From Physcomitrium patens (Eukaryota > Streptophyta > Bryopsida > Funariales > Funariaceae), in NCBI RefSeq assembly GCF_000002425.4, contig NC_037274.1, positions 14,423,517 to 14,487,516 of the forward strand: a stretch of DNA of 64,000 nucleotides, given 5' to 3'. Position numbers and translations under genes: made by a program. Every line of letters begins with the position of its first letter. The first letter of the stretch is position 1. Of the stretch, positions 29,806 to 64,000 are shown one piece after another. The notes under the pieces are model-generated. The model made no database searches. It was not told the DNA's origin and saw only the letters and a program-made list of their open reading frames with translations.

Positions 29806-32256
29806 GAGTATGTATTGTGGCCAATCCCATTTTATGTAATTCTGTTTTGATAATTAGGGTTGTTTGTTAATTGTCAAATCTAAGAACCATACATGAATGA
29901 TGACAAATAAACAAATTTTTTGCTTATGTTTATAAATATCATTATTATTTTTCATCATGTAATTTGATAGGTGATAATATTATAGTGTTTTTGATATTTA
30001 GAATACAATAGACAAGGGCACTCATCATTAGATGTTTTATCAAAGCTGCAATCAATTTTGCAACCAAGTTTAGGGTGAGTAGGTTTTTTCTTAAGAGGAA
30101 GTAGAGGACTATCTATCACTCCAAACTCTATGAGGTTGCTTCTTCAATAGATAATTCTAATACAAGAAATAAGTAGAGAAAAAAATATCATACAAATATA
30201 CCTATACATCTTGTACCACTACTTGCACCAATGATTAAAACGCTTTAGGCTTACATTATTGTGGCATGCATTGTCCTTTTGCTATGCTATGCAAGTCCAA
30301 TAATTAATACACTTAGTACTTGTATCAGATTATCTAAGTGAATTTGTATTTTTCTTTCTCTTGTATAATTTTTATTAAAGCTTGTGATTGTATTATTGTT
30401 ATCAAATTTAAGCTTATTGGTACCAAAAGTTCAAGCAATGTATCCAATACGATAGATTGATGTACAAAGTAAAGCTTGTGGCTAATCTTAGGCACAACAA
30501 TAAAAACAACCTACAACAACTAGGCTTGCATTGTCCTTTTGCTATTAAAGGATAGTATAAAATTATCAAAGCATGGATTCATGTCTATGATTAAGCTAAA
30601 GTGATTTCACCTAGATATCTACAATATAGATAAAGTAATTTCCATGATCTAGTCAAAGTGATTTTATCCTAATACCTACAATAAAGTCAATGTCCACAAT
30701 ATCCACAATATCCACAATCCAATCAATTCAAAGTGACTATAAGGTTTAAAATTAATATAATGAAATAATAAAAGAAGAGTGGTAGAGAATTGACAATCCT
30801 AATTTTCATCTTGTTTTTTATGCCTTTTTCATCTTAAATGCAAACTTCAAGTATAAGATAAAGCAAGATAAACCATTTCCAACATCTTTATGTAGAAATA
30901 AGACAATTGATGTTGAGTACAAGTAGCAAGAATTTTTTAATATGACATTTGACAATCAACTTATTTTATAGATTTCAAGATCTTTTCTAAGGCTCTAATT
31001 GTTGCTCTTGCTATCTATTATATCACATTATGTGCTTATTTAAAAGCATGCATTTGCACAGTCCTAAGTTCACTTGTCTTTTATATTCATAATCTTTAGC
31101 AATTGAGTGGTAATAGGATCTTGGCCTCATGCCATATTGAAAAATCATACAATACATGTGACAAACAACTTGATGCTTGGACAATCAACAAATTCAAGGA
31201 TAGAGTTTAGTAAGGTGTCCAAATGAAGTGAATTGCACCAACTCAAAAAATATATAAGAACTTCTTTTCTAAGAGATATTGAGGCATTGAATTTTATGTA
31301 GGTATGTACGGTGACAATGCATAAGATGTAGCTAATAGCAAGGCTTATCAAAATCAACGAAATACACAATGTTTTGAATATGCATAGCCACGTGAATAGA
31401 ATTAAGTATAGATATATATATATATATATAATATGGTTTGTATTTGCAATGGTCAATGCTCTAAAGCTTAAGCTTTTCACCAAATTTTTTATTTATTAAC
31501 ATAGCTCTTGACAAAGAAACTTATGGCTTTGTTAGAAGAAATGGCCTTTTCATTCAAAAAAAAAATTACTTGCAAAAACTAAATTTGTAGATTTGAAAGG
31601 CTTTATTTTAATTGTTTTAAGTCCTTTACAACTTAATCTTCTATTCTACTTTTAATCAAGATTATAATTAATATTAATTTGAGATATTAATCTTCTAAGA
31701 AATAGGCACATAAATATTATTTTTAATAGATATGTAGAATGTGGTTTTATTGGTCATTTACATAAAATGATGATTTAGTGATTATATTTTACTGACTTTT
31801 GGATCTTTGATTATAGATAGAAGTGAGAATCTAGCTCAAGATTGTAATGGATATGGACTTACTTCAAAAAACTTTGATTATAAAATCTAATATCCAACCT
31901 TAAAAGTTTTCTACTGAATCAATTATCTAATGAATCTTATTATTAATAGATAATTAGAGAACATAAAAAAGTCTAGTATTTGTATTTACTTTAGTATAAG
32001 AATATTTAAGGTTTGATTTGAATTATATTTAAATGAGGTTGCAACATATGTATAATAAATTCAAGTTAATTGGTAATGTAGTAGTAAAATATTATAAAAT
32101 ATAAACACCTAAAAGAAAGCAAGTATAGATTTTGTGTCCAATATCTTTGCAAATTTGCAATAATTTATATTTTCTCTTGTGCTTTTTTTTATTTTCAAAT
32201 TAGAAAAAAAGACATTATATAGAATATAGATTTGATCTATTTATTGTACTATAAAG
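29806..32256. other. AT-rich intergenic DNA, no gene recognised
   Basis: Long AT-rich stretch. The string GCATTGTCCTTTTGCTAT occurs twice (about 30,268 and 30,528), and there are short CCACAATAT repeats near 30,690-30,720 and a (TA)n tract at 31,411-31,430. The minus-strand open frame at 31,145-31,483 is low-complexity and spans the (TA)n tract, so I do not call it a gene. Confidence 0.5.
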
Positions 32257-32585
32257 TGTCACGGATATATACATTTACCTCAATAATTACTTATATGATT
32301 AGATAGAAATATATAAATATATATTAATTTTATAAAGTTTTTTAGATGCGATTTTGATTTTAGATGTGTTTGTAGATTGGAAACCTGGCCAACAAGTTAA
32401 CCATGTGTTGGTAGCTTGTGGAGTAAGTTAACTCCGTATAGTAGCTTGTAGAATAAGCTAACCATGTGGCATATATATAGATAACTTGCCTTGCAAGTTA
32501 AGACATGTGACTAACAAAGTCAACATGTTTTGGAGGTCCTATAGGACATCTCTATGTAGCTCCTAGTTAAGAGTATATATGAAAG
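32257..32585 (+). repeat. Sus-1 5' LTR, first part (up to Ath-2)
   Basis: It starts TGTCACGGATATATACAT and contains the family's repeated motif of paired AAGTTAAC / GTAGCTTGT units. It ends at the TATA box (GAGTATATAT, 32,571-32,580). The last five bases GAAAG (32,581-32,585) are matched by AAAAG at 43,903-43,907, the target duplication of Ath-2. Confidence 0.82.
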
Positions 32586-33376
32586 TGTGATTGCTCGTTT
32601 TACTTATTCCGGAAGAAACCTCCCAACATAAACTCATATAGGGGGATTCGAATACGAGGAATGACTAGTTGCTTAAGCGTTCACGTTAGGGTCACACAAT
32701 CAATTACCTCCTGAATGTATCGTCTCTATTTCCAATATCTGAACATACAAGGAAACTATAATCTCTTCCTTCACCTTATCGGTCTCTTCTTTATAGTAAT
32801 TCAGTCATACCAATAACTGCTATTTCCACCAATATATTCACCTTCATAATCTCCAACTGTAATACTACGCCTTCACAGCTTTCAGCATACAATTACCCTC
32901 GTTCCAATCACTAGAATTCCTCACACAGAATTTCCATTCACATTACAGTGTTTCATACAAACACAGACTCATTCTCTCTGCTGAACTACAATCAGATTTC
33001 AGAATTCAATCTTTCTTCTTCTCAAATAATACCAATCACATTTCCATTCCATAATTCACTTTACAATATTCAGAAACTTTCAATCCTCTTATTCAAAGAA
33101 AATAACAAACAAAAGAAAAGAGGTAGCACCAAGCTTACCCCGACTCACACTATCACAGCTATGGCCCTCAGCTCACAACTCTCACTGTCTGGCCCCCTAA
33201 TTAACTTCTACAACTTCTATATACTTTCCCCTGATTCTCCAGATTCTAACCGTAATTCTGTAATTAATCACTTTTAATAACTAAATCACTCATCCATCCT
33301 CCTGAATTTCCTATTATATGGACTATTAATATATTTTACCAATATCTTTCAAAAACGAATTAATATCTAATCTACA
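32586..33376 (-). repeat. Ath-2 3' LTR
   Basis: 791 bases, partner of 43,083-43,902. The purine tract AGGAGTGGAGCTA lies just inside it on the minus strand. Confidence 0.92.
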
Positions 33377-40860: not shown

Positions 40861-42826
40861 ATTCTACCCAATTCATTGGAGAATCTTGAGGACCTCGATT
40901 TATCTCCTCAAATTTTCCTTGGCTTTGGATCTATTGATCCCGATTATTGACATTGAACGGAGCATTACATTGCTGATACGTATGCCCCGACTGCTTGTAA
41001 TTCCCACAAACAGGTGCATAATCGTCACTGGCTCTGGGATTGGGACATTCATTGGCATAATAATGAATCTGTCTACAATGGAAACAACGAAGTGATCTTC
41101 TTGCACCCCCATCAAGCATATTGGATACCTCCACCAGTATATACCTACTAGGCTTGTTCCATGTAGAGTTGGATAATGATTCTGGTTGTCCCATTAGTAT
41201 TGAGGGAACTTGGTTTGATGACATCGGTGGAGCATATTGCTGATACCTCTGCTACTCCTTACCATAGTTCTGGGGGTTCGATGTAGACCCCTGATTAAAA
41301 TTGGAACTTTGAAAGTTATTGAATGCTTGATTTAGTCGATTAAATCGATTTCTATTCCATCCAAACGTATTTCCCATTTGTACTTGATTGACGTCCCACT
41401 GGATTGGTGGGATCATGGTCTGATTACTAAATTGTTGTTGTTATCTTTATCAATTCCAACAATTTGCTATTAGGTGCTTTCCTCCGTAAAATGTACATCG
41501 ACCCATTATTTGTGAGGATGAGGGGCACTCTGTTACAGAATGACAGTGGCCCTTACAATTATTGCACCATACATTGGTCCTAGTATTAGTAGGCTTTTGC
41601 CTCTTCTCCTTATCTTTGGCCATATTGATGGCCATTTCTTCCATTTTTTTCATCAAATTTAATAACAAAGTTTCGTTGGAATCTTTTAGGACTGGCATTA
41701 TTGGTATTTCTGCCATAATTAATGCTTGTTGTTGATAAGGAAAATATGGAGCATATGCTGTTGTCACGTTCGGTGGTATAGCTTGCAATGGGGTGACATT
41801 AATTGGCCCCTGAATATTCGTATTGGAATTGGCCCCTGTTTCTAACATCCGTAGATAACTACCCACTGATTTGTTCCAAGTCAGATTTTGATATCTATCT
41901 TGAATTGGAATCATCGTGGCTCCCGCAGTTAAAAACTGATCATAATGGCATTCCTTCCAAACCTTGGCTCTATTAAAGGATGCAGTCACCATAACGGGTT
42001 GAGCTTCCTTTACAAACATTTTTAGCTCTGGTGGGTACAAACCATTGATTAATATGGATAAGATAAATACCTCCGACATTTGGTGATTCGGCCACTTACT
42101 GAGTATATCAGCCACTCGGCCATAGTACGATTCCACCGCCTCCCCTAGGATCATTTTGTTGTTTATTAACCTCTCTCGAAGGTGGTCCTCAAAACCAATT
42201 GGCCAATAATGAGATAAAAATGCATTCTTCAATGCTTCCCAATTCGAAAATTGATCCACTAGTTGGCGGTTGTACCATTCAAATGTCGTGACTTTTAAGG
42301 TCACTGGCAGCCATCTTAGTGGCGTGACACTAGTCATACGATTGCCTACTACACCCATTTGTATTACAATTGGAATGGCTGGTCCTCTTGACGCCATTGA
42401 ATTTCTTGTTTCGCTAAACTCCATTTTAAAATAATCTCTGCTTTTTCTTATTCTAATTTTTGAGCTCTCAGTGCTCCTCGATTTATTGTTATTTTTTACA
42501 ATTAGTTTTATTGGTTGAATTGCAGGTGAAAACATCGGATTTTGAAATACAATATAGTTATCTTTATTGGCGACCAATTTGTGCCAATCTGAAGAGCCAC
42601 TATTGCTCATTTCAGCAGTACCTTCTACTGAAAAAATACCCAATGGAGTACCAAATTCTTCTACGCCTCCTTCTCTTTCAATTAACGGCCTCAAGATTTC
42701 CACTGGAATATTAACAAAATTTCCTACGAGTGTTCTTGGCAGTTTTCTAATTGTACATACGATTGCAGAATTAACAGTCTGTCCGATTCTTGATATGTTT
42801 GGATGTGCCGACAAGCTTACAACCAT
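40861..42826 (-). pseudogene. Ath-2 gag region
   Basis: The minus strand from 42,826 has an N-terminal region and a capsid-like core (TFEWYNRQLVDQFSNWEALK, SILINGLYPPELKMFVKEAQ). It is followed by up to four CCHC-like knuckles: CNNCKGHCHSVTEC (about 41,530), one right after it near 41,470, CFHCRQIHYYANEC (about 41,060) and one near 41,000. This is the longest preserved gag in the window. Broken. Confidence 0.88.
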
Positions 42827-43062: not shown

Positions 43063-43082
43063 CCCCGGCAGCAGCGCCAAAA
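43063..43082 (-). promoter_or_regulatory. Ath-2 primer-binding site (tRNA-Asp type)
   Basis: On the minus strand TTTTGGCGCTGCTGCCGGGG follows the 5' LTR directly. It matches the complement of the plant tRNA-Asp 3' end at nearly all positions. This is the typical Athila primer site. Confidence 0.85.
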
Positions 43083-43902
43083 TATGAAAGCTCGTTTTAC
43101 TTATTTCGGAAGAAACCTCCGAGCATAAATCCGTATAGGGGGATTCGAACACGGAAAATGACTAGTTGCTTAAGCGTTCACGTTAGGGTCACACAATCAA
43201 TTATCTCCTGAATGTATCATCTCTATTTCTAATATCTGAACACACAAGGAAACTATAATCTCCTTCTTCACCTTATCGGTCTCTTCCTTACAGTAATTCA
43301 GTCATACCAATAACTGCTATTTCTACCAATATATTCACCTTCATAATCTCCAACTGTAATACTATGCCCTCACAACTTTCAGCACACAATTATCCTCGTT
43401 CCAATCACTAGAATTCTTTACACAGAACTGCCATTTTTTATTACAATTTTTTACACAAACACAGACTCATTCTCTTTGCTGAACTACAATCAGATTTCAG
43501 CATTCAATCTTTCTTCTTCTCAAATAATACCAATCACATTTCCATTCCATAATTCACTTCACAATATTCAGAAACTTTCAATCCTCTTATTCAAAGAAAA
43601 TAACAAACAAAAGAAAAGAGGTAGCACCAAGCTTATCTCGGCTCACACTATCATAGCGATGGTCCTCGGCTCACAACTCTCACAGTCTGGCCCTCAGCTC
43701 ACAACTCTCACAGTTTGGCCCCCTAATTAACTTCTACAACTCCTATATACTTTCTCCTGATTCTCCAGATTCTAACCGTAATTCTGTAATTAGTCACTTT
43801 TAATAACTAAACCACTCATCCGTCCTCCTGAATTTTCTATTATATGGACTATTAATAGATTTTATGAATATCTTTCAAAAACGAATTAATATCTATTCTA
43901 CA
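43083..43902 (-). repeat. Ath-2 5' LTR
   Basis: 820 bases, partner of 32,586-33,376. It is longer mainly because a short unit (CTCAGCTCACAACTCTCACAG type, about 43,660-43,715) is repeated. Confidence 0.92.
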
Positions 43903-44155
43903 AAAAGCAAGAGTGAAGCCTTCTTTACTCTTGTCAATGCCATTGTTGTATTGTAATTGCTTATAGTATGTAAAAATTAGTTAAGACATTTTCGTTTTAA
44001 TCCTTAGTCTTGTTTCAAGACTTTTTAGTCTTTTTATTTTTAGCAATAGCCATTCTAATTAATATTATATTATCTTTTGAAAGACTTTTTAATTTTCTTC
44101 AATGACACAAGAATATATTGACGATTCTCTTTCTTTGAGATTCATGTCTTTGAAA
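43903..44155 (+). repeat. Sus-1 5' LTR, second part, with a 46-base foreign LTR stub
   Basis: It starts just downstream of the TATA box and contains the predicted transcript start ACTCTTGTCAAT (about 43,927-43,938). At 43,944-43,989 lies a 46-base remnant (TGTTGTATTGTAATTGC...) of the solo LTR that stands complete at 47,439 in the 3' LTR. The LTR end is placed before ATTTGATAAGAGT (44,156-44,168), the degraded self-priming site. Confidence 0.7.
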
Positions 44156-44345
44156 ATTTGATAAGAGTGCTAACATATTGTTTCTGTCTTGTTTAAGAAG
44201 TGAGTAGATTATCTCACTTCTATTATTGGATTTCAAAGGTTGTAGACTACTTACCTTTTAAACAAAAAAATCTTATTTTTTAACATTGATCTTTCTTTAA
44301 AGAGAGTGGATTATCCCTCTTTATAGAAATTTTTATTAAAGGTTA

Positions 44346-47050: not shown

Positions 47051-47438
47051 TGTCAGGGACATATACATTTACTTCAATAATTACTTATATTATTAGATAG
47101 AAATAGATAAATATAAATTAATTTCATAAAGTCTTTAGTGAAGCTTCTTAAAAGCTTCATAAATATGGTTTTGACTTTAGATGTGTTTGTAGGTTGGAAA
47201 CTTGGCCAATAAATTAATCACATATTGGTAGCTTGTGGAATAAGTTAATTTCCTATAATAGTTTGTTGAACAAGCTAACCATGTGGCGCATACATAGATA
47301 ACGTGCCTTATAAGTTAAGACATGTGGCTAACAAAGTCAACATGTTTTGGAGGTCTTATAGGACATTGCCATGTAGCTCCTAGTTAAGAGTATATATAGA
47401 AGCAAGAGTAAAGCCTTCTTCACTCTTGTCAATGCCAT
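47051..47438 (+). repeat. Sus-1 3' LTR (cut by a solo LTR)
   Basis: It starts TGTCAGGGACATATACAT and matches 32,257-32,585 then 43,903-43,943. It contains the TATA box and predicted transcript start. After AATGCCAT it is interrupted by 47,439-48,687 and does not resume. Confidence 0.82.
47391..47433 (+). promoter_or_regulatory. Sus-1 3' LTR TATA box and predicted transcript start
   Basis: TATATATA (47,391-47,398) stands 31 bases upstream of ACTCTTGTCAAT (47,422-47,433). The spacing is the same as in Sus-2 and Sus-3. Confidence 0.6.
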
Positions 47439-48687
47439 TGTCGTATTGTAATTGCTTATAGTATGTAAAAATTAGTTAGGACATATAATATGTTCATAAT
47501 TCTTGATGTATGTTAGAATAGTTAATAGATTAATTTAAAGAGAATGGATATAAAAAAAACTTTATTTTTAATTTTATCTATTTTTATTATAGCATTTAAA
47601 AACAAATTATAAGACCTAAATGTTTAGTATGAAGCTTTGAGAGGAGATTAGAGCCTAAAGAAGAATATCTTAACTAGTATGAGGCTTATTGGGAGGGATG
47701 AAAGTAAGATATGGATGGATGAATGCCAAGAATAGAAATCTTCATTCCTATTGGTCGAAGGCCATGCCCAATGGACTTCAAGGAGGCTGCCTAAGGCCTT
47801 ATTAGGGATTAGGGTTTTTCTTTTGAGGGCATTTGGAAATTGAAAGCCAGATTTGTGAGTTTTAGGATTTGGGATACAATTTTTGTGCAAAAATTAGACG
47901 ATTTGGAGTTAGGATGAAGAAGTTATAGACGTTTGAAGTTAAGGCGTTAATTTAAGATATACTATTTCTCTTTTGTAAATACAAGAATTTTTATGGCATT
48001 TTTTGAAGATCGGAAGGTGCGGTTAGAATGGCAATTTCAAGGCCTACATCTTTTATAAAAGAATTATTACTTTTGGAATTCATATAAAGGAGATATAAGG
48101 AGTTGAAGGCGATGCTTCCAAATCAAAGGCAATAAGTGAGCGGTTTTGTTCATAGTAATGATTAGGGCCATATCTTGAGTTTTTGGAAGAATTTTTAGCT
48201 CAAATCTTTTGGAGAAGGTATTTAAATGTGTTAAAAAACTATAAATATAAATTTTGTGGTATTTAAATTTTTAATTAGTGAGATATGAAGGAAATTGCAC
48301 ACGGGTAGATAAAAACTAGGATTTGAAGCTACTATTAGGATTTTCAAGATATCTCAAGATCTGCAACAAATTTGCAGTTGAAATTTGTTGTAAAAGTTGA
48401 TAAAAATTCATTAGTACTTCATGTAAAATTTGAGTATGTTTGGATGGTCGGATCAGGAGTTATGAAGTATTCAAGTTTGGAAATTTTTCTACATAAGGAT
48501 ATACAAGGATTTAGAAGATTTTATCATATTTTGGAGGTTGTTGGTTACTTGAGGCTTATGTATTTGGTTTAATTGCTCCAAAAAGAAAATTTTACATATA
48601 AATTTAGGGCTTTTCTTATTTTGATGGTTGATTGAGCAATTAGTGATAGCCAGGAGTCTAGTGCTTTCTTGAGGCAAACTCTCTTAA
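47439..48687 (+). repeat. Solo LTR of the TGTC...GACA family, in Sus-1 3' LTR
   Basis: It starts TGTCGTATTGTAATTGC and follows the 7,447-8,709 copy throughout (ATTGGTCGAAGGCCATGCCC, TGGTCGGATCAGGAGTTATG). It continues to GAGGCAAACTCTCTT, where similarity stops short of the usual GACA end. The right boundary is therefore approximate. Confidence 0.75.
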
Positions 48688-50689: not shown

Positions 50690-51055
50690 GGTTTTATGTA
50701 TGTTTTTATATTGTATCATGGATGGAATAACCTTTCCAAAGGAATTTGTATTAAAATTGTGGATGTCCATTGCCTCGACAAAAATAGTGATGTTTCAAAA
50801 TGATATCCACTTCATACTTTTATTGGTCATTAATCACAACCGATGGTGCTGGTGGTATTTGGTATTGATTCAAAAAGCACCTTCACTTGATAAAAAAATT
50901 CTTTGAATTAAAAAATATGGAAGTCCAGATGGATTTGAATATGTAGCAAAAGTTCAAGGTAGTATGCAACATCAGAAATCACTACAGAAATGCAAAAAGA
51001 TCTAAGCCAATAAAGTGCCAACTTACAAATTTGAATTGATGTAGTAAGTAGAAAG
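50690..51055 (-). pseudogene. Chr-1 integrase C-terminus and chromodomain
   Basis: On the minus strand a chromodomain can be read at about 50,697-50,820: KYEVDIILKHHYF, then FLWKGYSIHD, the usual aromatic and KGY landmarks. Upstream, at 50,880-51,050, are integrase C-terminal remnants. The + strand open frame at 50,646-50,906 is its antisense shadow. Broken. Confidence 0.6.
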
Positions 51056-51601
51056 TATCATGGATATATACATTTATCTCAATACTTATATGATTAGGTA
51101 GAAATAGATAAATGTAGATTAATTTCATAAATTCTTCTAAAGAAACTTCTTAAAAGCTTCATAGATATGGTTTTGACTTTAGTTGTATTTGTAGATTAGA
51201 AACTTGGACAACAAGTTAACCAAGTGTTGGTAGCTTATAGAACAAGTTAATTCTATGTAATAGTTTCTAGAACAAGCTAACTATGTATTACATACATAGA
51301 TAACTTGCCTTACAAATTAAGATATATGGCTAGCAAAGTCAACACATGTTGGAGGTCATATAGAATATCGCCACTTAGCTTCTAATTAGAGATTATATAT
51401 AGAGGCAAGACTAAAGCCTTCTCCACTCTTCTCAATGCCTTTCTAGTCCTTAGTTTTATTTCAAGACTTTCTACTCTTCTTGTTTTTGGCAATAGCTATT
51501 CTAGTTTAATAATGTATCACCTTTGAGTGACTTTTTAGTTTTTTTTAGAAATACAAGAGTGTATTGAAGATTTTCTTTTTTTGAGATTCAAATCTTTGAC
51601 A
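51056..51601 (+). repeat. Sus-2 5' LTR
   Basis: 546 bases, matches 59,436-59,986. TATATATA (51,394-51,401) stands 31 bases before ACTCTTCTCAAT (51,425-51,436). The LTR is followed by GTTTGACAAGAGT (51,602-51,614), which is largely complementary to that start. Confidence 0.85.
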
Positions 51602-51818
51602 GTTTGACAAGAGTGCTAATCTATTATTTCTGTCTTGTTTTAGAAGTGAGTGGATTATTCCACTTCCATTGTTGTATTTTAAAGGTTGTAGACTATTTAT
51701 TTTTAAACAAAAAAATCTTATTTTCTAACATTAATTTTTTTCTTAAAGAAAGTGGATTATCCTTCTTTGTGGAAATTTTTATTAGAGATTACAAATTACC
51801 CTTTTCTAATTTAACTTT

Positions 51819-52500
51819 TTGAATTTCTTTGAGTTATCTGTAGAAGGAAAGATTATAGATGCTACTCTCATCAGAAATAAGAATAGATTTGCAACTATTG
51901 CAGATCTTCATGAATTTTTCAATACTTTAAGAGTAGAAATTTCACATATTTCTAATGTAAATCATGGAGATACTATGCCTATGTCTATAGAAGAAGTTCA
52001 AAGTCTGCGGCAAAAAATTGTATAGTTGAAGGAAGCAAGTAGATCGACCTCACAACCAAATCCAAGGAATTTTGCTTCTACAAGTATGACAAAGACAAGG
52101 ATTAGTATACTTGAGAAGTTTGATGGAACAAGATCAAAATTTTGAGGATTTTTACAACAAGTCAAGCTCTATCTAAGGTTGCATCTTTTCCAATATTTCA
52201 ATGGATTTACTCAAGTCGGATTCATAGGCACATTTCTATTAAGAAGTGACCTCTCTTAGTTTCCATCTTTAATGAAAAAAGATTCAAGGCTCTTTTATGA
52301 TTTGAATTAATTCTTAGAAGTTTTTATGGCCACATTTGGAGAAAGTAATTAAGAAAGAATAGCAAAGACCAAACTCTTATCTTTATGGCAAAGATCATGG
52401 TCAGCCATCATATATGCAACTGAATTCCAAATCCTTGCTTGTAACATAGACTAGAATGGCAAAGCCCTTATCAATCAATTTCAATATGAATTGAAGGATA
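51819..52500 (+). pseudogene. Sus-2 gag region (first part)
   Basis: It matches Sus-1 gag, with LEKFDGTRSKF and a following capsid-like stretch. It is split by the Athila-type solo LTR and then by the 2.2-kb insert. Short gag pieces follow at 53,265-53,461 and 55,710-55,880, the latter with the knuckle. Broken. Confidence 0.75.
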
Positions 52501-52505
52501 ATATC

Positions 52506-53259
52506 TAAGATTGTCATTTTACTTATTTTATAATTTCTTCCAGAATAAACCTGTATAAGAAAATTCGAACACAGGAAAAAATTAAGTACATGAGTTTTAC
52601 TTGTTAGGGTCACACAATTAACCATATTTCAAACCATTAAAATACTAAAAAATATTATAATGCTTTCTTGTAATAACAATACTCCTTTATCAATTGATAA
52701 CAAGAGTGTGCAACCCTGCACTCTCAAAATACCGCTCAAAACACAATAATTTCCATCCAACACCAAGAATAACAGACTTCACTCCAACAATCTGAATTCA
52801 CATAATTTCTATAATCACAGACTTCCTCTGTCGAAATACACACAGCTCTCAATAAACAACAGTCATAATCTTCCAATAACTCCTCATATAATTCAATCAC
52901 TCAATACTCCAATTACATAATTAATAACTCATAAATCAATCTTTGATTTATTCTATAGACTCACTTCTCAGTATTCAAAAACTATCCATTATTCTTTAAC
53001 AACAAAGAAAACAAAGAAACAAAGAGACAAAGATGTAGCACCAAGCTTACCTCAGCTTATGACTATCACAGTCTGGCCTTCCAACAATCTTCTACAACTC
53101 CTATATAATTGCTCTTGATTTCCAGATTCTAACAGTAATCCCATAATTAATCACTTTTAATAACTAAATCAATCATCAGTCTTCCTGAACTAACTATTCT
53201 ATAGACTATTAGTCTATTTTACCAATATCTTACAGAAACGAACTAATATCTATTCTACA
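52506..53259 (-). repeat. Solo LTR of the Athila-like family, in Sus-2 gag
   Basis: 754 bases aligning along its whole length with the Ath-1 LTRs (for example AGTTTTACTTGTTAGGGTCACACAA, ending CTATTCTACA). Flanked by perfect ATATC duplications (52,501-52,505; 53,260-53,264). Sus-1 keeps the uninterrupted gag sequence at about 45,050. Confidence 0.93.
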
Positions 53260-53466
53260 ATATCAAAGACTTCTTACTAATAGTACTAAAAGTAGAATCT
53301 TTGAAGCAATTTATTGCTCAAGCCATTGCATGTGACAATCGATTATATAAAAGATGTAAAAACAAAGATTTGGCTGAAGAAGAACAAATCAAATAGTAAA
53401 AATAGCTCTTAAATTTTTAAAATTATATTCATCAAGACCTAAATCAATACAAATTGATATGATATG

Positions 53467-55704
53467 TGTGAACTCCAGATTATGTTCCAAGATTAAATTT
53501 TATATTTTTTCTTGTATTTTGTAGTAATTGAACAAGTTACATCATGATTTATACAAGTAAAATCTAATTTTATGGAATTTTGACGGTTAGAACCTTTGAT
53601 AGTATAAATCTTAACCTAATTCTTTAAATTGGATTAATTAGGACCAAAATCATAGACTTTAAAAAATTAGAATAATAAGTTAATTAGTTTTAGTAATTTA
53701 CAAATTATATTCATTGCTATAAGAATTGATTGAGAGCCTATGAATTCACTTACAATCATCTCATATGATTTAGAGTGAATTAAAATCATAAGCTTCTAAA
53801 AAGGATTCTAGAGAAAATTAGCAAATGCAATTTGAAGTTTTTCTCCTAATTCAACAAATTCAAGCAACAAAGTGGCTTTTCTAATTAATGGAAGCCTTCC
53901 AAATGCAATGGCGGCATTGGATTTGCCTCATGGAGTGAAGAAAACAAGATCAGTACCTCTCCACCAAATTACAAGTGGAGCCATAAAGATGTCATTTTTG
54001 AAGAAATTTTCAATAATTGCTAAAACTCTTGGAGGTAAAAAGTTCATAAAAATTGCATATGAATGTGGATTGGGATAGATGAGTAGTCAATCTCAGCATA
54101 AAAAGATGTTTTAAACACAATAGTGAAGTTAGATTTACAAAAAAAATGTTTTTTTGACCACTTATAAGAGCCATCAGTCTTAGTGACGGGATTAGCTCTT
54201 GAATGAATGAAGGCCATAGATCTACATTAGGAATCTTAGAGATCAAGGGTGGAGATGTGGCCACCCTCCCACAAGCCACCACTCAATAGTATAAGAGTGG
54301 CTTGGTTTTCCAAGCCCTCTCTTTCTCTTTTTTGATGAAGGACAAAGCCATGCCAAAACTTGGCCTAAAATCCTAATTCTAATTTCATTTTGGATCCTAA
54401 TGCTCATTGTGCACCTTGTGAATGTGTGAACATTGATTTTGTGTTGTGGGTGGTGCTTATTGTGGTTTAGAAGGCACTCCCTTAGAATTAGTGGTTTCCA
54501 AATACTTTCATAGTTAAATGAGTTTGAAGGGCCTCGGATTTTTCCCAATGAGTTTCTGGTCCTTTTAATTTTTTTACTGAATTTTTTTGAGCACATATCT
54601 CATACTGTCAGCTTTCCAACGAGCTTAGGCTTGCTCAATTTGGAGCTAAAACAAATGTTTTGAGAATTTTTGAGTGCGAGGGGATCGGCTGCCTTGGCAG
54701 TTTGGATCACCAGTCTTTGAAAAGACATTTCTCAGTGATTTTTGCTTAAAACATTCTGAAATTTTAAGAATAAGGGCACATACAAGTTTAGCTTCCAATA
54801 GCACAAATTGGATTACGTTTGAAGCAGATCCGAATTTTTGGTGCATTTTGGAGTGAAGGGTGGTAAGCTGCAATGGTGGTCTCGGTTATTCAACTTTGAA
54901 GGAGCATTGCGCATGCCTCAGGTATTGGATTGCCACACAGTTTCTTGGAGCAGGAGCATCTTCAAGTTAGGTTTCCAACCAAGCAAAATCCATCAGAATT
55001 GAAGCTGATACAAATGGTTGGCAAAATTTGGAGTAGAAAGGAGTTGCTGCCCTAAATTCTTGGTTGTTATCAAGGTGCCTTCTCTTCATCCCTCTTAGTT
55101 TTTATTTTCTCTTTTATTTTTACAGTAACTCGTTACTTCCATATGTAAACTTTGAACTTTAACTTTTACTTATTACTTTTAACTTTTATTTTTTACTTTT
55201 TACTTTTTACTCAATCAATAACTTTATTTTTTATTTTTTATTTGTTAAAACTTGAACTTTTAATTTTTACTTAAGTTTTTACTTTTACTATGGATTAATA
55301 ATAATGAATTAATTCATTACTCTTACCACCAATTATTTAAGAAGTAATAATTCATATATTAATAATAATAATAATAAAATAAAATAAAATAAAATAAAAA
55401 ATAAAAAATAAAATAAAAAATAAAATAAAAAACCTAATAAAAAAATTTTAAAAAAAAATTAAAACTAAATTATATAATTAGAATTAAAAGAAGAAATTTT
55501 TTTGCATAAAGTTTAATGAGTGAATTATCATTTTAAATGTGAATAATGATTGGAAGATTTTATTAATAATTTGGTATTTTAACAATAATAACTAATGATT
55601 GGATTAAAATTAAATAATGGCCTTATTTTTAAATTCACCTAATCAAGTCACTTTTTATGAATTAAAACAAACTTCCAACTAGTGGAGGTTTATTTGAGTT
55701 CACA
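53467..55704. mobile_element. 2.2-kb insert with inverted ends, probable solo LTR, in Sus-2 gag
   Basis: It starts TGTGAACTC and ends GAGTTCACA, a perfect 9-base inverted pair. ATATG lies on both sides (53,462-53,466; 55,705-55,709), and Sus-1 shows the uninterrupted gag text. No convincing coding region. It contains mixed sequence at 53,850-55,080 and a pyrimidine/AT-rich region with an (AAAAT)n tract at 55,365-55,450. The TG...CA ends and 5-bp duplication favour a long solo LTR. A non-autonomous DNA transposon is the alternative. Confidence 0.7.
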
Positions 55705-55877
55705 ATATGTTTTGAATCCCTGACTAAGTAAGAAAAGATTTAACGACATCAAGAAGGTTTATGCTTATATTCTAGAGAAGCTAAATATACTGCTCAACAT
55801 TGTTGAAAGAAACAATACAACTACAAAATGAGAAGCATGGTTGCCAAAGAAGACAATGTATCAAAAAATAAGTTTTT

Positions 55878-56250
55878 TTGGCTACAATTGGAACCGTGCA
55901 GCTAGAATCTTGTATAACTTCTAGTAAAGGTCATATTTTCTCATCATACGCTTCACCTTATTTTACAATAGAAGTTTATTTAGGATCAAAAAATCAAAAA
56001 GTCTTAGCTTTGTTAGATTTTAAAGCCTTAGCCTATTTTATAGATGAAGAATTTGTCAAAAAATAAGAGATATCATTAGTCAAGAAAACTAAGCGTGTAC
56101 ATATAAAAGTCATAGATGGTCATTCACTATCTTCTAAAGATATTACGTATAAGATTGTTTCTTTAGATGTAGCAATTAAGGATCATAATAGTATAGTAAT
56201 AGTTAATGTAATAAAATCTTTATTAAATCCAATTATTTTAAGACTATCTT
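55878..56250 (+). pseudogene. Sus-2 protease region
   Basis: YLGSKNQKVLALLDFKALAY and VSLDVAIKDHNS-type text matches Sus-1 45,449-45,811. Retropepsin-like position between gag and RT. Broken. Confidence 0.65.
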
Positions 56251-56539
56251 GATTAAAAAATATATAACCCTCTAATAAATTGGATTTCTAATAACCTTAA
56301 TTTTTCTGTTACTTTAATCCAAAATCTTGTTAATCAAGTAAAAATACATAAGTCTAGTACATCCAAATCCTTATTAGTAGGTACAAGAGCCTTCATGCAT
56401 GTCGCAAAAAAAAAATTATCTTTTGCCTTATATGCCATGCCCATTTCTAATAGCAAGAAGATGCTAAGTAGAATTCCTAGCTATTATCAAGATTTCTAGT
56501 ATGTTTTTGAATAGAAGAATCCAAATATTCTTTCAGAGC

Positions 56540-57250
56540 ATCATCCTTATCATTGTTCCATTAATCTTCATGAAGGAACTAAACCATCATTTGGAGCAAT
56601 CTATAGCCTATCACAAAATGAGTTGGTTGCATTCAAGGAATACATTGATGAAAATTTAGTTAAGAATTTCATACATCATTTTAAATCTCCAATCAAGGCT
56701 TCTATCTTATTTGTGAAGAGAAAAGATAAATCTCTATAGATGTATATAGAGTACCAAGGACTCAATAAAATCACCATCAAGAATAAATATCTTCTATTTT
56801 TAATTTTAAGATTTCTTGATTAAGTGAATCAAGCAAAGATCTATACAAAAATAGATCTACAAAGAGCATATAATTTGGTATATATTAAAGATGGAGATGA
56901 ATAGAAAAGTGTATTTCAAACCACGTATGGATATTTTGAATATGATGTTATGCCTTTTTGACTCACAAATACACCAGCTACTTTTTAATATCTAATGAAT
57001 GATATTTTTTTGTAAGTTTCTTAATGATTTTGTTATCTATTATTTGGAAGATATCTTAATCTACTCTAAAACTACAAAAGAATATGAAGTTCATGTTCAT
57101 TATGTATTACAAAAACTTAGAGATGCAGGATTATATACAAAGTTAGAAAAGTATATACTCTACATTACTCAAGTTAACTTCTTAGGATATATCATTTCCA
57201 ATAGAGAGCTAATAATGGATCCAAAGAAGGTCCAAACTATCATGGATTAG
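56540..57250 (+). pseudogene. Sus-2 reverse transcriptase region
   Basis: Fingers (AIYSLSQNELVAFKEYIDEN, ASILFVKRKDKSL) are followed by the palm (YTKIDLQRAYNLVYIKDGDE, VIYYLEDILIYSKT near 57,030-57,075) and NFLGYIISNRELIMDPKKVQ (57,177-57,235). The motif wording is that of sushi-type RT. Broken. Confidence 0.85.
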
Positions 57251-57830
57251 AAGATTTTAAAAATAAAAAAAAAAAAATATAATATTTTTTGGGCTTTGCT
57301 AATTACTATCAAAACTTCATCAAGAATCTTTCTCAAGTTGTAGTTGTATTTTCATGTTTGACTTATAAAGACAAATTTGAATAGAGTATAGAAGTCGAAG
57401 TATTATTTGATACTTTAAAAAAGAATTTACTTTGGCACGAATCTTATATCACGTTGACTTTTCAAAGGTATTTTTTATGGAAACAGATGCATTAGATTCT
57501 GTCTTGGATGCAGTATTATTACAAATAGGAGCAGATAATAAACTCCATTTAGTAGCTTTTCAATCTAAAAAAATTTTAGCAGTCAAGATTAATTATGAGA
57601 TCTACAACAAAGAACTCCTTATAATCATGGATTCATTCCAAGAATAGCATCATTATTTAGAAGGTACCTCAAGTCCAATCATTGTATATACAGATCATAA
57701 GAACCTCAAGTATTTCATGTCAACATGTATTTTAAATCATTACTAAGCTCATTGGAGCATATCTTTATCAAAATTTGATTTCAACATCACTTATTGATCC
57801 AAAAAATAATAAGATTTATCAAATGTCCTT
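57251..57830 (+). pseudogene. Sus-2 RNase H region
   Basis: FFMETDALDSVLDAVLLQIG and INYEIYNKELLIIMDSFQE, then HYLEGTSSPIIVYTDHKNLK and SLSKFDFNITY (57,432-57,790). This is the RNase H of Ty3/gypsy RT. Broken. Confidence 0.85.
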
Positions 57831-57938
57831 TCTAGACATTCTTATCTTATACCAAAAGAAAGAAATACATCTTTTGATTAATGAAGAATAATTTTTTTAA
57901 AAGCGGAAAATTTTCATCTTTGAGCTACAAAATCAACA

Positions 57939-58960
57939 TTGACTATTGATTCAATATTTGTCAAGCAAATTCAATTAAGCATGTCCTTTGATCGTCTTGT
58001 TCATGATATCAAGAATCTTTCTTCTAAGTCTCATGATATTTTGAAGTTCAAATTTAAAAATAATCTATTCTATTTCGAAAGATGCCTATATGTTCTAGAA
58101 GAAGAAGTACATTTACGTATTCTTCAAGCACATCACGAATTTTTAGCAGCAGGATATTTTGCATACAATAAGACTTTAGAACTTATATCTATACATTTTT
58201 GGTGGTTTTAAATGTAAAAGGTAGTAAAAGACTTTTTCCAATCTTATGACATTTATTCAAGATTAAAAACTCCTTGTCATCGATCCTATGGACTTTTTCA
58301 GCCATTGCCTATATTTGAACAACTATAACCTTTCATTTCTATGGATTTTATTATAGATCTTCTAAGTTCAAGTTCATATGACTCTATATTCAAAATCATA
58401 GATTGCTTCATCAAAATGGTACATTTTATACCATGTAAAAAATCTATTTCAAGTAATGAAATAAGATTTTCATTGATAATATCTATTGCTATCATGAAAT
58501 ATCAAAGGATATTATATTAGATAAAGAGAATCAATTTATATCAAGATTTTGGAAAATCCTATTCAAGATTCTAAAGGTGGATATAAAGCTCTCTTTGACT
58601 TTTTATCCTCAAATTGATGGGCAATTGAAACAGATGAATTAAGTTTTGGAGGAATATTTGAGGTATACCATCAACTATCATCAAGTTGATTGGATAATTT
58701 TTTTGCTATGGGCAGAGTTTGTATACAATAATTTGATATATTCTTCTATTCAATAAATATCTTTCTTTATCAATTATGGTTATCATCTACAACTTGATAC
58801 TTTTGACTTTTTAAAAGTTAACAATCCTAAGGCAGAAGATTAAGCAAATTATTTGTCAGAGCTGCATGAAACAATGAAAACATAATTAAAAGAAGCTCAA
58901 GGATGACAAAAGTCCAATGCAGATGTCTATTGTAAGAAGCAACCATAATTTAATTTGGGT
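57939..58960 (+). pseudogene. Sus-2 integrase region
   Basis: Zinc-binding part (LRILQAHHEFLAAGYFAYNK, about 58,110-58,165), core (FISMDFIIDLLSSSSYDSIF, KIIDCFIKMVHFIPCKK; about 58,330-58,440) and later blocks to about 58,960. Broken. Confidence 0.8.
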
Positions 58961-59146
58961 AACAAGCTATGGTTACTTTATCGTAATATTAGAACTACTT
59001 GCCTTTATAATAAGTTGGACTATTGTATGCTTGGACCTTTTTCTATTTGTAAAAAAATTAATCATGTTGTTTATTAATTATATCTACTAGAATCTATAAA
59101 GATCTACCTTATATTTCACATATCTTTTCTTTAGCCATATAAGACA

Positions 59147-59344
59147 GTGGATATTTTGGAAAGAAGACTAATGCCACATCCTCCTATAGAAGTAGATAGT
59201 GATCAAGACTTTGAGGTAGAAGAAATCTTAGATTCAAGATTAAAATATCTTGTTCATTGGCATGGATATGATATTCATGAATGTGCATGGGAATCAACAA
59301 AGAATCTTGCAAATACAACCAAGAAAATTGAGACCTTTTATTGA
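59147..59344 (+). pseudogene. Sus-2 chromodomain
   Basis: DFEVEEILDSRLKYLVHWHG, then YDIHECAWESTKNL: the chromodomain pattern with aromatic-cage positions, H-W-x-G-Y and W-E landmarks, at the C-terminus of integrase. In this family the domain is thought to guide integration to marked chromatin. Part of a broken element. Confidence 0.88.
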
Positions 59345-59435
59345 TGACATCCATCAGAATCAAGATGAAGACTTACAAGATCCATGAAAGATGATGATTG
59401 CTCCTCATCAAATTCATTCCTAGAAGAGAGAGTAA

Positions 59436-59986
59436 TATCACAAACATATATATTTATCCCAATACTTATTTATATGATTAAGTAGAAGTAAGTAAATATG
59501 GATTAAATTGGATTAAAGTCTTGTAGATGACCTTCTTAGAAGCTTCATAGATGTGATTTTGACTTTAGATGTGTTTGTAGGTTAAAAACTTAACCAACAA
59601 GTTAACCTCATATTGGTAGCTTGTGGAACAAGTTAATTCCGTGTAATAGCTTATAGAACAAACTAACTATGTAGCACATATATAAAGAACTTGCCTTACA
59701 AGTTAGAACATGTGGCTAGCAAAGTTAAGACATGTTGGAAGTCTTATAAAATATCGCTATGTAGCTCCTAGTTAGAGAGTATATATGGAGGCAACAATGA
59801 AGTCTTCTTCACTCTTCTCAATGTCTTTCTAGTCCTTAGTCTTATTTCAAGTCTTTCTAGTCTTCTTATTTTTGGCAATAGCCATTCTATTTTAATATTA
59901 TATTATATTTGAATGACTTTTTAGTTTTTTTTATAATACAAGAGTATATTGAGGATTTTTTTTCTTTGAGATTTATGTCCTTGATA
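59436..59986 (+). repeat. Sus-2 3' LTR
   Basis: 551 bases, partner of 51,056-51,601, preceded by the purine tract AGAAGAGAGAGTAA. It ends GTCCTTGATA directly before GAAAG. This end point fixes where the LTR stops in the whole family. Confidence 0.85.
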
Positions 59987-62251
59987 GAAAGTAATACTTG
60001 GTCACCCTTCTGAAAGGTCTTGTATTACCAATGGTTATTCATATATTATTTCTATCAATTTTGTGCAATAAAGAAGCAATATCATGTTTCTTATAAGGGT
60101 GTTATAAGCCATTATATAAACTCCTCCATTATTGGGTTGTTGATGTCAATGATATGATAGAAAGTTTTTAGCATAATTGAATGATGATTGATATTAAAAA
60201 ATAATTGATACTTGTTTGAGTACTATTATTATAAGTAAATTCCAAAGACATCAAATATTCATCCCAATTATTATGATAAACCACCAAAAATACTCGTAGC
60301 ATATTATTTAAGATTCAATTTGTATGTTTTTTTTGTCCATCTATTTGAAGATGGAAGGCTATGGATATGGCAAGTTATATGCATAGTAGCTTGAACAAAT
60401 TTTATTAGCAACTTTCTATAAAGCATGGATCTTGATTTAAAACAATGACACGATGTAGTCCATGGTGATGAAAGACAATATTAAAGAAGATTCATATAAA
60501 ATTTAAGACATTAATATTAAAACATACTATAGCCAAGTGAAATTACTTTAAGAGGCAGTCCACAAAGACAACAACAATGATATGATTGTGAGGCGTCTAT
60601 AAGAAATGCGTAATGAGATCTACAGTCACATGCTTCCAACATGCCATAGATAGTGGAATTGATAACAATAGTCGACAAGATGTTATATTATATGCTTTAT
60701 TACATTGGCGTGACTCATAGGAGAATACAAAAGCTCAAACATCAAGATCCAAACTTGCCCAAAATCAGGTCTTTGAGATCCATTCTAAAATCTTGTCACG
60801 CATAAGATGTCTGGATATTTAAATATCATGTCTCTCTTGAAATATTTACATCTAAAGTATAGTATTATCAAATACATAAATCTACTTTTTAAAATACTAT
60901 AATCCATCACTAAGGTAATAATCTTAATATTATACATCATCCATCTTTAGTTGATTAGTAATCATCTTGAAATAAGTATTCCAATGTATAGCTTCCTTTT
61001 ATTTTGCTCTTTTGATTAGGTTTGAAATAACACTATTAATGGTAGCAATTTCTACCTTATCCTTTGATATGGACTTTAAGTCTAATCTATGCAATAAGAT
61101 GTCCAATAGAGTATATTGTTGTCCTTACTTGTATTCAAGTTGAATGTCAAAGAGCTAAAATTATTTTTTCAACAATAATATTGTGATTTCATATTTTTTA
61201 TATGCAAATTGTGTAGCCAGGATCAATGGTCAGTCCAAATAATCATTGGCTTCCTCAACAGATAGTATTGCCACACCTTTGTCGCATGTATAATTGCTAG
61301 TTGTTCTTGATTACATACAAAGTAATTATACTCTACCTTTTTGAAGTTGCATGATTCATATGGTAAAGATTGAAGACTCTTATCAAAATCTTGTTGAACG
61401 ACTGCACTAATAGCAAAGTCAAAAGCATCAATATCAAGTATATAGGGAAGGTTGAAATCATATGATTGCAATATTGGAGCAATAATAAGTACTTCTTTCA
61501 ATTTATCAAAGATCTTTTTTTGCTCCAATTTTTATTCAAATAAAGTATCTTTTTCTAATAAGCTTGTTAATGAGAGAGCAATGTGTACAAATTGCCAAAA
61601 AAAAAGGCAATAATATCTAGTAAGGCCTAAGAATGAGTAAACTTTAGAAGCATCTTAGACGATTAGCCAATCTTCTACTACTTTTATTTTATCTTGCTCC
61701 ATGTACATGCATTTAAAGAACACAACATGCCTCAAAAAAATGACCTCCAATTTCTAGAGCTACAATTTGATTGCTTGTAATAAAAGCGATTATTTTATAA
61801 TTAATATAATACTTCTTATAGATGTTGTTCATGCTCCTCAAAAGTTTTATTATAAATTAAGATATCATTGATGAAGACAATTACATATATATCCAAAACG
61901 TCTTGAAATAATCTATTTATGTAATCCATAAAAGAAGTTGAAGCATTGGTGAGGCTAAAAGATAAAATAAGCTATTCAAAATCTCTACATCATGTATAAA
62001 AGGCCATCTTTTTTATATCCTCTTTTGCAATAGGTGTTTGTCAATAGCCACTTCAAAGATCTAATTTACTAAAGATGGTTACACCTCAAAGTTGATCAAG
62101 AAGATCATCCACGCATAAAAGTGGATATGTAATTTTAACAATCTATTTCTTGAGGACTAAATAATCGATACAAAGCCAAAGTCTACCATCCTTTTTGGAT
62201 GCAAAGAATACATATACTTTCTATGTTGACATGCTACCACAGACATACTCA
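59987..62251 (-). pseudogene. Chr-1 RT, RNase H and integrase region
   Basis: Minus strand: RT (KKDGRLWLCIDYLVLKK and palm text, 61,600-62,220), RNase H (61,223-61,528: LPYILDIDAFDFAISAVVQQ, NQEQLAIIHATKVWQYYLL) and integrase (about 60,250-60,480: NQDPCFIESC, AFHLQIDGQK, NNWDEYL). Order and wording are those of plant chromoviruses. Heavily broken. Confidence 0.82.
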
Positions 62252-62796
62252 TGTAAGCTAGTAATTACATATACAAATAAGTAGAAGTAAGTAAAAGTAA
62301 ATACAAGTAAGTTAATTCTATAGTATTTAATATAGAAGCTTCCTAGAAGCTTCATAGATGCTATTTTGACTTCATAGGTTTCTTTAATTGACTTTTTAGA
62401 TTAGAAACTTGGTCAACAAGTTGGCCATGTGCCACACATGTTGTTAGCTTGAAGATCAAGCTAACTATGTGGCCCACATGTAGAAAAACTTGCCTTATAA
62501 GTCAAGGCATGTGTCCTACAAAGTCAAAACATATTGGAAGTCCTATAGAACGTTGCTACATAGCCCCTAGTTAGATAGTATATATAGAAACAAGAGTGAA
62601 GCCTTCTTCACTCTTGTCAATTCCTTTCTTGCTTCCAGTCTAGTTTCAAGGGTCTCTAGTTTTCTTGTCTTTTGACAATAGCCATTCTAGTTTCTCTTTC
62701 AATATACATACTTGATTATTTATATTTTGTTACCTTTCTTTGAGTGAAGGCTCACTTGTCTGAATTACTTTTTTCATCGAGTTCTTGTCCTTGACA
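62252..62796 (+). repeat. Sus-3 5' LTR
   Basis: It matches the Sus-1 and Sus-2 LTRs (AGCTTCATAGATGCTATTTTGAC, paired CAAGTTGGCC/CAAGCTAAC units, TATA box, CTTCTTCACTCTTGTC). It ends CCTTGACA, the same point as the Sus-2 3' LTR end defined by its target duplication. Confidence 0.8.
62579..62622 (+). promoter_or_regulatory. Sus-3 TATA box and predicted transcript start
   Basis: TATATATA (62,579-62,586) is followed 31 bases from its first base by ACTCTTGTCAATT (62,610-62,622). This is a normal plant TATA-to-start distance. The 13 bases are the exact reverse complement of the site just after the LTR. Confidence 0.65.
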
Positions 62797-62809
62797 AATT
62801 GACAAGAGT
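62797..62809 (+). promoter_or_regulatory. Sus-3 self-priming site (reverse complement of own transcript start)
   Basis: AATTGACAAGAGT directly follows the LTR end CCTTGACA. It pairs perfectly with ACTCTTGTCAATT at 62,610-62,622. In Tf1 and sushi elements the mRNA 5' end folds back on such a site to prime reverse transcription. Confidence 0.65.
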
Positions 62810-63009
62810 ACACCTACAATATCAGAGCTTTGTCTAATCTTGATTAAGAGTGGATTGTCCTTTTTTCTTGATAAGATATAAGCATATTAGAAGTTGCGGA
62901 TTACCCTCTTCTAAACTGATATTGTCCTTAGTATTTTCTTTGTTCTGAAGTCCTCTCTTCTATTTGTCTTGAGCAATATTAGACATCTTCTCTTTTCTAA
63001 GTGTTATCA

Positions 63010-64000
63010 TGGCAGAACTTGTTGAAATAAAGAATGCAATGGCATAAATGCAAGAGCAATTGAAGGAGTTAATGCTTGCGATGCATCAACTCAGTTTACT
63101 ACCACAAAGAGCAACAAGATTGGTAGGAAGTGAAGATATAGAAATGATTGGAGCTGCTTCAACATCTCCACCAAACCATATCCTTTCTCATATGGTGGAA
63201 CGCCCTTCCAATGTTAAAGAACTAAGAATTGCCCTACTCGAGAAGTTTGATGGCATCAGATCCAAGTTTCGAGGATTTATCAATCAAGTAAAACTTGTGA
63301 TTGAACTTCAATCCCAAAGCTATCCAACTCTAGGATCGCAAGTTAGATTCATTGGTATGCTTCTTTTAGGTTCAATACTATCGTGGTTTTCATCTTTTCT
63401 TGAACGACAAGATCCAATATTAGATAATCTAGATACTTTTCTGGTGGAATTTTGATCTATGTATGAAGAACATGATGCAATTCATGTTGCAACCAATATG
63501 ATCCGTATTTTATGACAAGACAATCGATCAGTAACGTTGTACACTTCATAATTTTGACAACTTGCAACTGATATCAAGTGGAATGATGCTGCACTTATTA
63601 GCCAATTTCTCTACGGATTACAATATGAGGTAAAAAAATTAATGCTCAACTTACCTGATCCTCAAACATTGAGTCAAGCAATTGACTTTGCTGTGAAGTG
63701 CGACAATCGTCTTTTTGAATTTTGATCTGAGAACCGTACAAGTGGACCTCAACGTTATTATAATTCAATGGCAACACCAATACCTCTTCAACACATACAT
63801 TCAGAAGTAGAGGATATGCAAATTGATGCAGTACGTTTCAAACCTCTTACTGAGCGAGAAAAGACTCGTCGTCATCAAGAAGGATTATGTTTATATTATG
63901 GAGAACCAAAGCACACTGCTCAACATTGTCCAAAGAAATGACGCAATCACAAAATGAGGAGTATGGTTGTGAAAGAAGATAATATGTCGGAAAACAAGTT
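63010..64000 (+). pseudogene. Sus-3 gag region (5' part of element, runs off window)
   Basis: Starts MAELVEIKNAMA. A leucine-rich stretch is followed by LLEKFDGIRSKFRGFINQVK, LVIELQSQSYPTLGSQVRFI and SILSWFSSFLERQDPILDNL. Later come AIDFAVKCDNRLFE-type text and a knuckle (LYYGEPKHTAQHC, about 63,888-63,930). The order and wording closely follow sushi/PEG10-type gag (SYP, W-W/FLE, DNRL, CLYCG...GH...C). A few breaks. Confidence 0.82.

What the first reader, a model, noticed from the sequence alone, without database searches (positions are those of the whole stretch)
62252..62809. Self-priming signature in a plant LTR element (Sus-3)
Right after the LTR end lies AATTGACAAGAGT (62,797-62,809), the exact reverse complement of ACTCTTGTCAATT (62,610-62,622). 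The latter starts 31 bases downstream of a TATA box, where transcription should begin. A 13-base perfect match at exactly these two places is what Tf1 and sushi-type elements use to prime reverse transcription with their own mRNA 5' end. No tRNA primer site lies at the LTR end. Plant LTR elements are normally tRNA-primed. I do not know whether this has been reported for this plant lineage.
Basis: partly seen in the sequence, partly recalled or inferred. Interest (0 to 1): 0.88.

Follow-up and report, generated by a model that had tools for sequence, protein, structure and literature searches.

The report
Probably self-primed moss retrotransposon
A decayed jumping element in a moss carries, right after its terminal repeat, a short site that matches the predicted start of its own RNA, so its RNA could have primed its own copying; this priming mode has already been predicted for this group of moss elements.

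Summary
ACTCTTGTCAATT (62610-62622) and its exact reverse complement (62797-62809) are present; 0 of 2000 LTR shuffles gave such a match. The first lies 31 bases after the TATA box, as in 4 of 4 LTR copies keeping both motifs. A second, two-LTR element (51056-59986, target duplication GAAAG) fixes the LTR end. All three copies with a readable 5' LTR/internal junction show LTR end, two bases, then an 11-base site facing their predicted RNA start: 11 of 11 in Sus-3, 10 plus G-U in A, 10 of 11 in B. Tf1's published primer is also 11 bases. Pieces of RT, RNase H, integrase and chromodomain lie in B. No TGG lies within 40 bases of these three LTR ends. The host is Physcomitrium patens (kelch protein, 293/293 aligned residues identical). 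Self-priming was already predicted for most plant Tcn1 chromoviruses (mosses, clubmosses; PMC6317226, passages), so this is a decayed probable member of a known kind. No covariation was seen among three pairs, no RT tree was built, and RNA starts are unmapped.

The parts
62235..62796 (+). 5' LTR of the Sus-3 copy, about 562 bp (start judged from the alignment, TACCA where A3 has TGTCA; end TTGACA)
62579..62587 (+). TATA box TATATATAG, first T 31 bases upstream of the predicted RNA start
   Evidence: same spacing in 4 of 4 LTR pieces with both motifs
62590..62617 (+). perfect inverted repeat, 12-base arms and 4-base loop, spanning the predicted U3/R junction; its 3' arm overlaps the self-primer
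62610..62620 (+). predicted RNA 5' end / self-primer ACTCTTGTCAA (the complementary stretch runs to 62622 in this copy)
   Evidence: RNA start inferred, not mapped
62797..62798 (+). 2-base spacer AA between the LTR end and the 11-base site
   Evidence: GT in B, AT in A
62799..62809 (+). predicted self-primer binding site TTGACAAGAGT
   Evidence: pairs with 62610-62620 in predicted folds
63048..63455 (+). open piece of gag; DUF4939 and Ty3 capsid matches, both below the curated cut-off
51051..51055 (+). target-site duplication GAAAG, left, of element B
51056..51601 (+). 5' LTR of element B
51425..51435 (+). predicted self-primer of B, ACTCTTCTCAA
51604..51614 (+). site of B, TTGACAAGAGT, after the 2-base spacer GT
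56999..57250 (+). reverse transcriptase piece of B (PF00078, above cut-off)
57411..57647 (+). RNase H piece of B (PF17919, PF17917, above cut-off)
57924..58211 (+). integrase zinc-binding piece of B (PF17921, at cut-off)
59135..59344 (+). chromodomain of B (PF00385, above cut-off), just before the 3' LTR
59436..59986 (+). 3' LTR of element B (ends TTGATA)
59987..59991 (+). target-site duplication GAAAG, right, of element B
43905..44155 (+). truncated LTR piece A5 (ends TTTGAAA); primer motif 43927-43937
44158..44168 (+). site of A, TTGATAAGAGT, after the 2-base spacer AT
47054..47440 (+). interrupted LTR piece A3 (starts TGTCAGGG); primer motif 47422-47434
32250..32581 (+). LTR fragment of the same family, cut off before the primer motif

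Best explanation
Sus-3 is a decayed copy of a chromodomain Ty3-type retrotransposon of the moss Physcomitrium patens that primed reverse transcription with its own RNA, as Tf1 does. RNA synthesis would start at A62610 (inferred from the TATA spacing). The first 11 bases, ACTCTTGTCAA, fold back on TTGACAAGAGT, which begins 2 bases past the 5' LTR (complementarity shown; pairing predicted). The RNA would be cut after base 11 by RNase H and the 11-mer would prime minus-strand DNA, which copies the 2-base spacer and then U5 (inferred from Tf1). The gag and pol frames of the copies here are broken into pieces, so they are relics.
For: Sus-3: 13-base exact match, 0 of 2000 shuffles. TATA-to-motif distance 31 in 4 of 4 LTR pieces. 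LTR end fixed by the GAAAG duplication of element B. Site 2 bases past the LTR end in 3 of 3 copies with a readable junction. Primer-site stem in the minimum-energy fold of 3 of 3 leaders; pairing probability above 0.9 at 10 of 13 (Sus-3), 7 of 11 (B) and 9 of 11 (A) positions. No TGG in the first 40 bases in 3 of 3. RT, RNase H, integrase and chromodomain pieces in B. Papers, passages only: Tf1 primer of 11 bases cut between bases 11 and 12, and fungal Tcn1 proposed to self-prime (PMC7175516); self-priming predicted for most plant Tcn1 elements (PMC6317226).
Against: B has a C-C mismatch at primer base 7, carried by both its LTRs, so it probably predates insertion; A has a G-U there; no compensatory change in three pairs. 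The exact-match test on B alone is not significant (7 bases, 837 of 2000 shuffles as good); it was not run on A. A B leader starting one base later and ending at 51645 did not pair the two sites (z +0.93, 164 of 200 shuffles as stable). The Sus-3 leader is only modestly stable (z -1.83, 9 of 200). Tf1-like side duplexes were not significant in 6 of 6 tests (27 to 245 of 500 shuffles as good). Conservation of the R start among Sus-3, B5 and B3 is high but not outstanding (5 windows better, 32 tied, of 513). A Met-tRNA-like stretch starts 20 bases past the Sus-3 LTR end. RNA starts are not mapped.
Confidence: 0.87

Rival explanations
1. The element is tRNA-primed by initiator Met tRNA: the true site is CAATATCAGAGC (62817-62828), a decayed TGGTATCAGAGC (plant sequence recalled, from no call), and the LTR ends near 62816.
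For: 9 of 12 bases match in Sus-3; 0.012 such sites expected per scan of 34 starts.
Against: The target duplication of element B puts the LTR end 20 bases earlier. B's best match there is 7 of 12 and A's is 8 of 12, both elsewhere. The CCA complement TGG is missing in 3 of 3.
Confidence: 0.05
2. The complementary stretches are real and selected, but serve another RNA or DNA function (leader folding, packaging, promoter dyad), and priming uses an unknown primer.
For: The motif also pairs with an arm just upstream in U3 (12-base perfect inverted repeat in Sus-3). Neither a tRNA nor a self-priming site was found in Selaginella SM-Tcn1 (PMC2864245, passages).
Against: Position right after the LTR, length of 11, and coincidence with the predicted RNA start are what Tf1-type priming requires.
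Confidence: 0.06
3. Chance complementarity in AT-rich DNA.
For: The exact match in B alone is unremarkable (7 bases).
Against: 0 of 2000 shuffles for Sus-3; same place in 3 of 3 junctions and fixed TATA spacing in 4 of 4, though these copies share descent and are not independent.
Confidence: 0.02

Closest known systems
Plant Tcn1 chromoviruses (Novikova 2010, Neumann 2019)
   Same: Moss host in which Tcn1-like elements are described; chromodomain; no tRNA site at the LTR; self-priming predicted for most members (passages)
   Different: Identity with a named P. patens family (PpatensLTR, RLG1) was not tested; SM-Tcn1 of Selaginella was reported to show neither kind of priming site
Tf1 of Schizosaccharomyces pombe and the Tf1/sushi group
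   Same: First 11 bases of the RNA complementary to a site downstream of the 5' LTR; chromodomain (passages)
   Different: Side duplexes of the pretzel structure not supported here; moss host; one mismatch in one of three copies
TAR lineage Ty1/copia of plants (Houba, Osr-1)
   Same: Self-priming predicted in plants (passages)
   Different: Ty1/copia; the element here has a chromodomain and Ty3-like RT

Membership tests
Ty3 chromovirus | RT, RNase H, integrase, then chromodomain before the 3' LTR | tested here: met
   Pieces of B match PF00078, PF17919, PF17921 (at cut-off) and PF00385 in that order
Tf1/sushi group (plant Tcn1) | RNA 5' end complementary to a site next to the 5' LTR | tested here: met
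   11 of 11 in Sus-3, 10 + G-U in A, 10 of 11 in B; the RNA start is inferred from TATA spacing
Tf1/sushi group (plant Tcn1) | no tRNA-complementary site at the LTR end | tested here: met
   No TGG in 40 bases in 3 of 3 copies; only TGG and the recalled Met complement were tested, not a tRNA set
Tf1/sushi group (plant Tcn1) | group I chromodomain with aromatic cage | tested here: inconclusive
   Aligns with a CDY chromodomain with F, W and Y at what I recall as the cage positions; no retrotransposon chromodomain was compared
Tf1/sushi group (plant Tcn1) | RT tree placement with Tf1/sushi/Tcn1 | not tested
   No named reference set; the RT piece found 8 relatives, none with a named organism; 2 of 3 solved chains found are Ty3 by name or polyprotein title (7q5b Ty3-G; 4ol8 named only RT/RNase H, Ty3 by recall)
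Tf1/sushi group (plant Tcn1) | pretzel RNA with two side duplexes | tested here: inconclusive
   6 tests, 27 to 245 of 500 mononucleotide shuffles as good
Tf1/sushi group (plant Tcn1) | primer cut from the RNA 5' end by RNase H | not testable with these tools
   needs biochemistry
tRNA-Met-primed plant element | TGGTATCAGAGC (recalled) abutting the LTR | tested here: not met
   Best match 9 of 12, starting 20 bases past the LTR end, in 1 of 3 copies

The most novel reading that the evidence does not exclude
The self-primer has two partners. In the 3' end of the RNA, where U3 is transcribed, a perfect 12-base hairpin (62590-62617) would lock the 3' copy of the primer sequence, so that only the 5' copy can reach the binding site. 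Since the first DNA strand would lack the complement of the first 11 bases, the hairpin need not block strand transfer. A built-in switch of this kind would be a new detail of self-primed elements. It is perfect only in Sus-3, has one mismatch in A3 and is largely lost in B.
Probability: 0.12. Interest if true: 0.5.

Novelty: new member of a known kind. Interest (0 to 1): 0.25.

Why it matters
It gives a base-level case of probable self-priming in a moss chromovirus, where one survey predicts the mechanism for most Tcn1 elements and an earlier study found no such site in Selaginella SM-Tcn1. The shared mechanism bears on whether these elements came to plants from fungi. It does not reveal a new mechanism.

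Tried and rejected
Rejected: the initiator-Met site at 62817-62828 (wrong place relative to the LTR end fixed by the target duplication, not found in the other two copies). Rejected: chance for the 13-mer pair.

Tried without gain: Tf1-like side duplexes; gag against solved structures, 0 hits at E 0.1; RNase H piece likewise, 0 hits at E 0.01; RT relatives, 8 proteins without a named organism; gag relatives, 3 proteins, one named; viral contigs with the RNase H piece, 15 pattern matches, none confirmed. Scans with a 17-base stretch of the LTR gave 5 viral-contig and 20 genome-contig stretches; I took these for chance from the record names and titles and did not analyse them.

Covariation among many genomic copies could not be tested: the genome search did not complete.

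From the alignment I first thought that the two LTR pieces of element A share an insertion after the primer motif. The window self-comparison shows that a separate repeat begins at 47439, so I make no claim from it. That A5 and A3 belong to one element is likewise assumed, not shown.

Full report
WHAT IS THERE. With one mismatch allowed, ACTCTTGTCAATT has 5 matches in the window against 0.16 expected: the given pair, two starts of other LTR pieces (43927, 47422) and one unfollowed match at 2514 on the minus strand. The 20 bases after the Sus-3 LTR end share a 13-base exact reverse-complement match with their LTR, reached in 0 of 2000 dinucleotide shuffles (longest 12). For element B the longest exact match is 7, reached by 837 of 2000; A was not put to this test.

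COPIES. BLAST of 61952-63200 against the window, and an alignment, give six LTR pieces: Sus-3 (62235-62796), B5 (51056-51601), B3 (59436-59986), A3 (47054-47440), A5 (43905-44155) and a fragment at 32250-32581. Five of six carry the primer motif: ACTCTTGTCAA in Sus-3, A3 and A5, ACTCTTCTCAA in B5 and B3; the sixth is cut off before it. Four of six keep TATA and motif, and in all four the distance is 31 bases. B5 and B3 agree at 453 of 545 aligned bases (83.1%), so the insertion is old; Sus-3 agrees with B5 at 73.7% and with B3 at 74.5%.

WHERE THE LTR ENDS. B5 and B3 flank one element: GAAAG precedes 51056 and follows 59986. B5 ends TTGACA and B3 TTGATA; by alignment Sus-3 ends TTGACA at 62796 and A5 ends TTTGAAA at 44155. 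Three pieces keep the 5' LTR/internal junction. Each reads LTR end, two bases, then an 11-base site: AA-TTGACAAGAGT (Sus-3), GT-TTGACAAGAGT (B), AT-TTGATAAGAGT (A). Against the copy's own predicted RNA start the pairing is 11 of 11 in Sus-3 (13 of 13 with the spacer), 10 Watson-Crick plus one G-U in A, and 10 of 11 in B. The departures in A and B both concern primer base 7 and are not compensatory, so covariation is not shown. B's variant is in both its LTRs and probably predates insertion.

FOLDING. In folds that begin at the predicted RNA start, the primer-site stem has pairing probabilities of 0.45-0.98 in Sus-3, 0.67-0.99 in A, and 0.74-0.97 apart from the mismatched base in B, and the stem is in the minimum-energy fold of all three. 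The tool fold of Sus-3 contains it (z -1.83, 9 of 200 shuffles as stable). A tool fold of B from 51426 to 51645, one base short at the 5' end, does not (z +0.93, 164 of 200). Side duplexes like those of the Tf1 pretzel gave 27, 224, 83, 59, 177 and 245 of 500 shuffles as good.

tRNA ALTERNATIVE. No TGG occurs in the 40 bases after the LTR end in 3 of 3 copies. Sus-3 has CAATATCAGAGC starting 20 bases past the LTR end, 9 of 12 to the recalled plant initiator-Met complement, with 0.012 expected per scan; B and A reach 7 and 8 elsewhere. No full set of moss tRNAs was tested. It is kept as a weak rival.

WHAT THE ELEMENT IS. Ten open pieces were sent to Pfam. In B, separate pieces match RT, RNase H and chromodomain families above the cut-off and integrase zinc-binding at the cut-off, in chromovirus order. 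The gag piece of Sus-3 matches DUF4939 (24 bits, cut-off 29) and Ty3 capsid (13, cut-off 29.1) below the cut-offs. Four of ten (51810, 45410, 56515, 58890) gave nothing; the tenth is the host kelch protein. The frames are broken into short pieces. The RT piece finds Ty3 among solved structures. I built no RT tree, for want of named references, so the Tcn1 placement is inferred from host, chromodomain and priming.

HOST. The kelch protein at 25361-26344 is identical over 293 of 293 aligned residues to a Physcomitrium patens protein; the last 35 of the 328 query residues lie outside that alignment. The next named relatives are from the mosses Ceratodon and Sphagnum.

COMPARISON WITH PRINT. All papers were seen as passages found by term, none in full; no supplement was seen. 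PMC6317226: 12% of the plant elements analysed were predicted to self-prime; most Tcn1 elements lack a tRNA site and are predicted to self-prime, unlike all other plant chromoviruses; plant Tcn1 is found in moss and clubmoss. PMC2864245: P. patens elements group with Tcn1; neither kind of site found in SM-Tcn1. PMC3350952: group I chromodomains in plants tied to Tcn1-like and some other non-seed-plant elements. PMC7175516: 11-base Tf1 primer; fungal Tcn1 proposed to self-prime. PMC10085805: the pretzel. PMC4600332: Tj1 proposed to self-prime. PMC7466625: RLG1 is the abundant chromodomain family of this moss; the word priming does not occur in its main text. PMC3601003, PMC4659654 and PMC2206039 added nothing used here. 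In the listings and passages (open-licence papers only) I saw no base-level description of this site; a further search failed twice.

EXTRA FEATURE. A perfect 12-base inverted repeat with a 4-base loop, 62590-62617, spans the predicted U3/R junction. It is one of two places in the window with arms of 10 or more, loop 3-8 and at least 3 G+C in the 10-base arm. A3 folds the same hairpin with one mismatch; in B3 a 5-pair remnant is left and in B5 none; A5 was not folded there. Its role is speculative.

Noticed in passing
62443-62465: A second perfect inverted repeat (10-base arms, 3-base loop) lies in U3 of the Sus-3 LTR.
   Followed up: no
32582-33376 and 43079-43902: Two copies of one repeat, 89% identical, each abut a Sus LTR fragment near the same point between TATA and the primer motif; at 47439 another repeat begins right after the primer motif of A3. 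The LTR promoter may be a favoured insertion point, or one event was duplicated.
   Followed up: partly
9232-14162 and 36032-42318: Two long repeat copies, 82-84% identical over the matched stretches, whose minus-strand open frames look Ty3-like by eye (no family search made).
   Followed up: no
25358-27029, minus strand: F-box/kelch-repeat host gene, identical to a P. patens protein over 293 residues; the minus-strand frame at 26592-27029 may be its 5' part.
   Followed up: partly
protein P0094 (hit to the gag piece 63048-63452): A 94-residue protein filed under the bacterium Kitasatospora herbaricolor is 70% identical over 60% of this moss gag piece; it may be contamination of that assembly.
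   Followed up: no
2514-2526, minus strand: AATCTTGTCAATT, one mismatch from the primer motif, outside the LTR pieces described.
   Followed up: no
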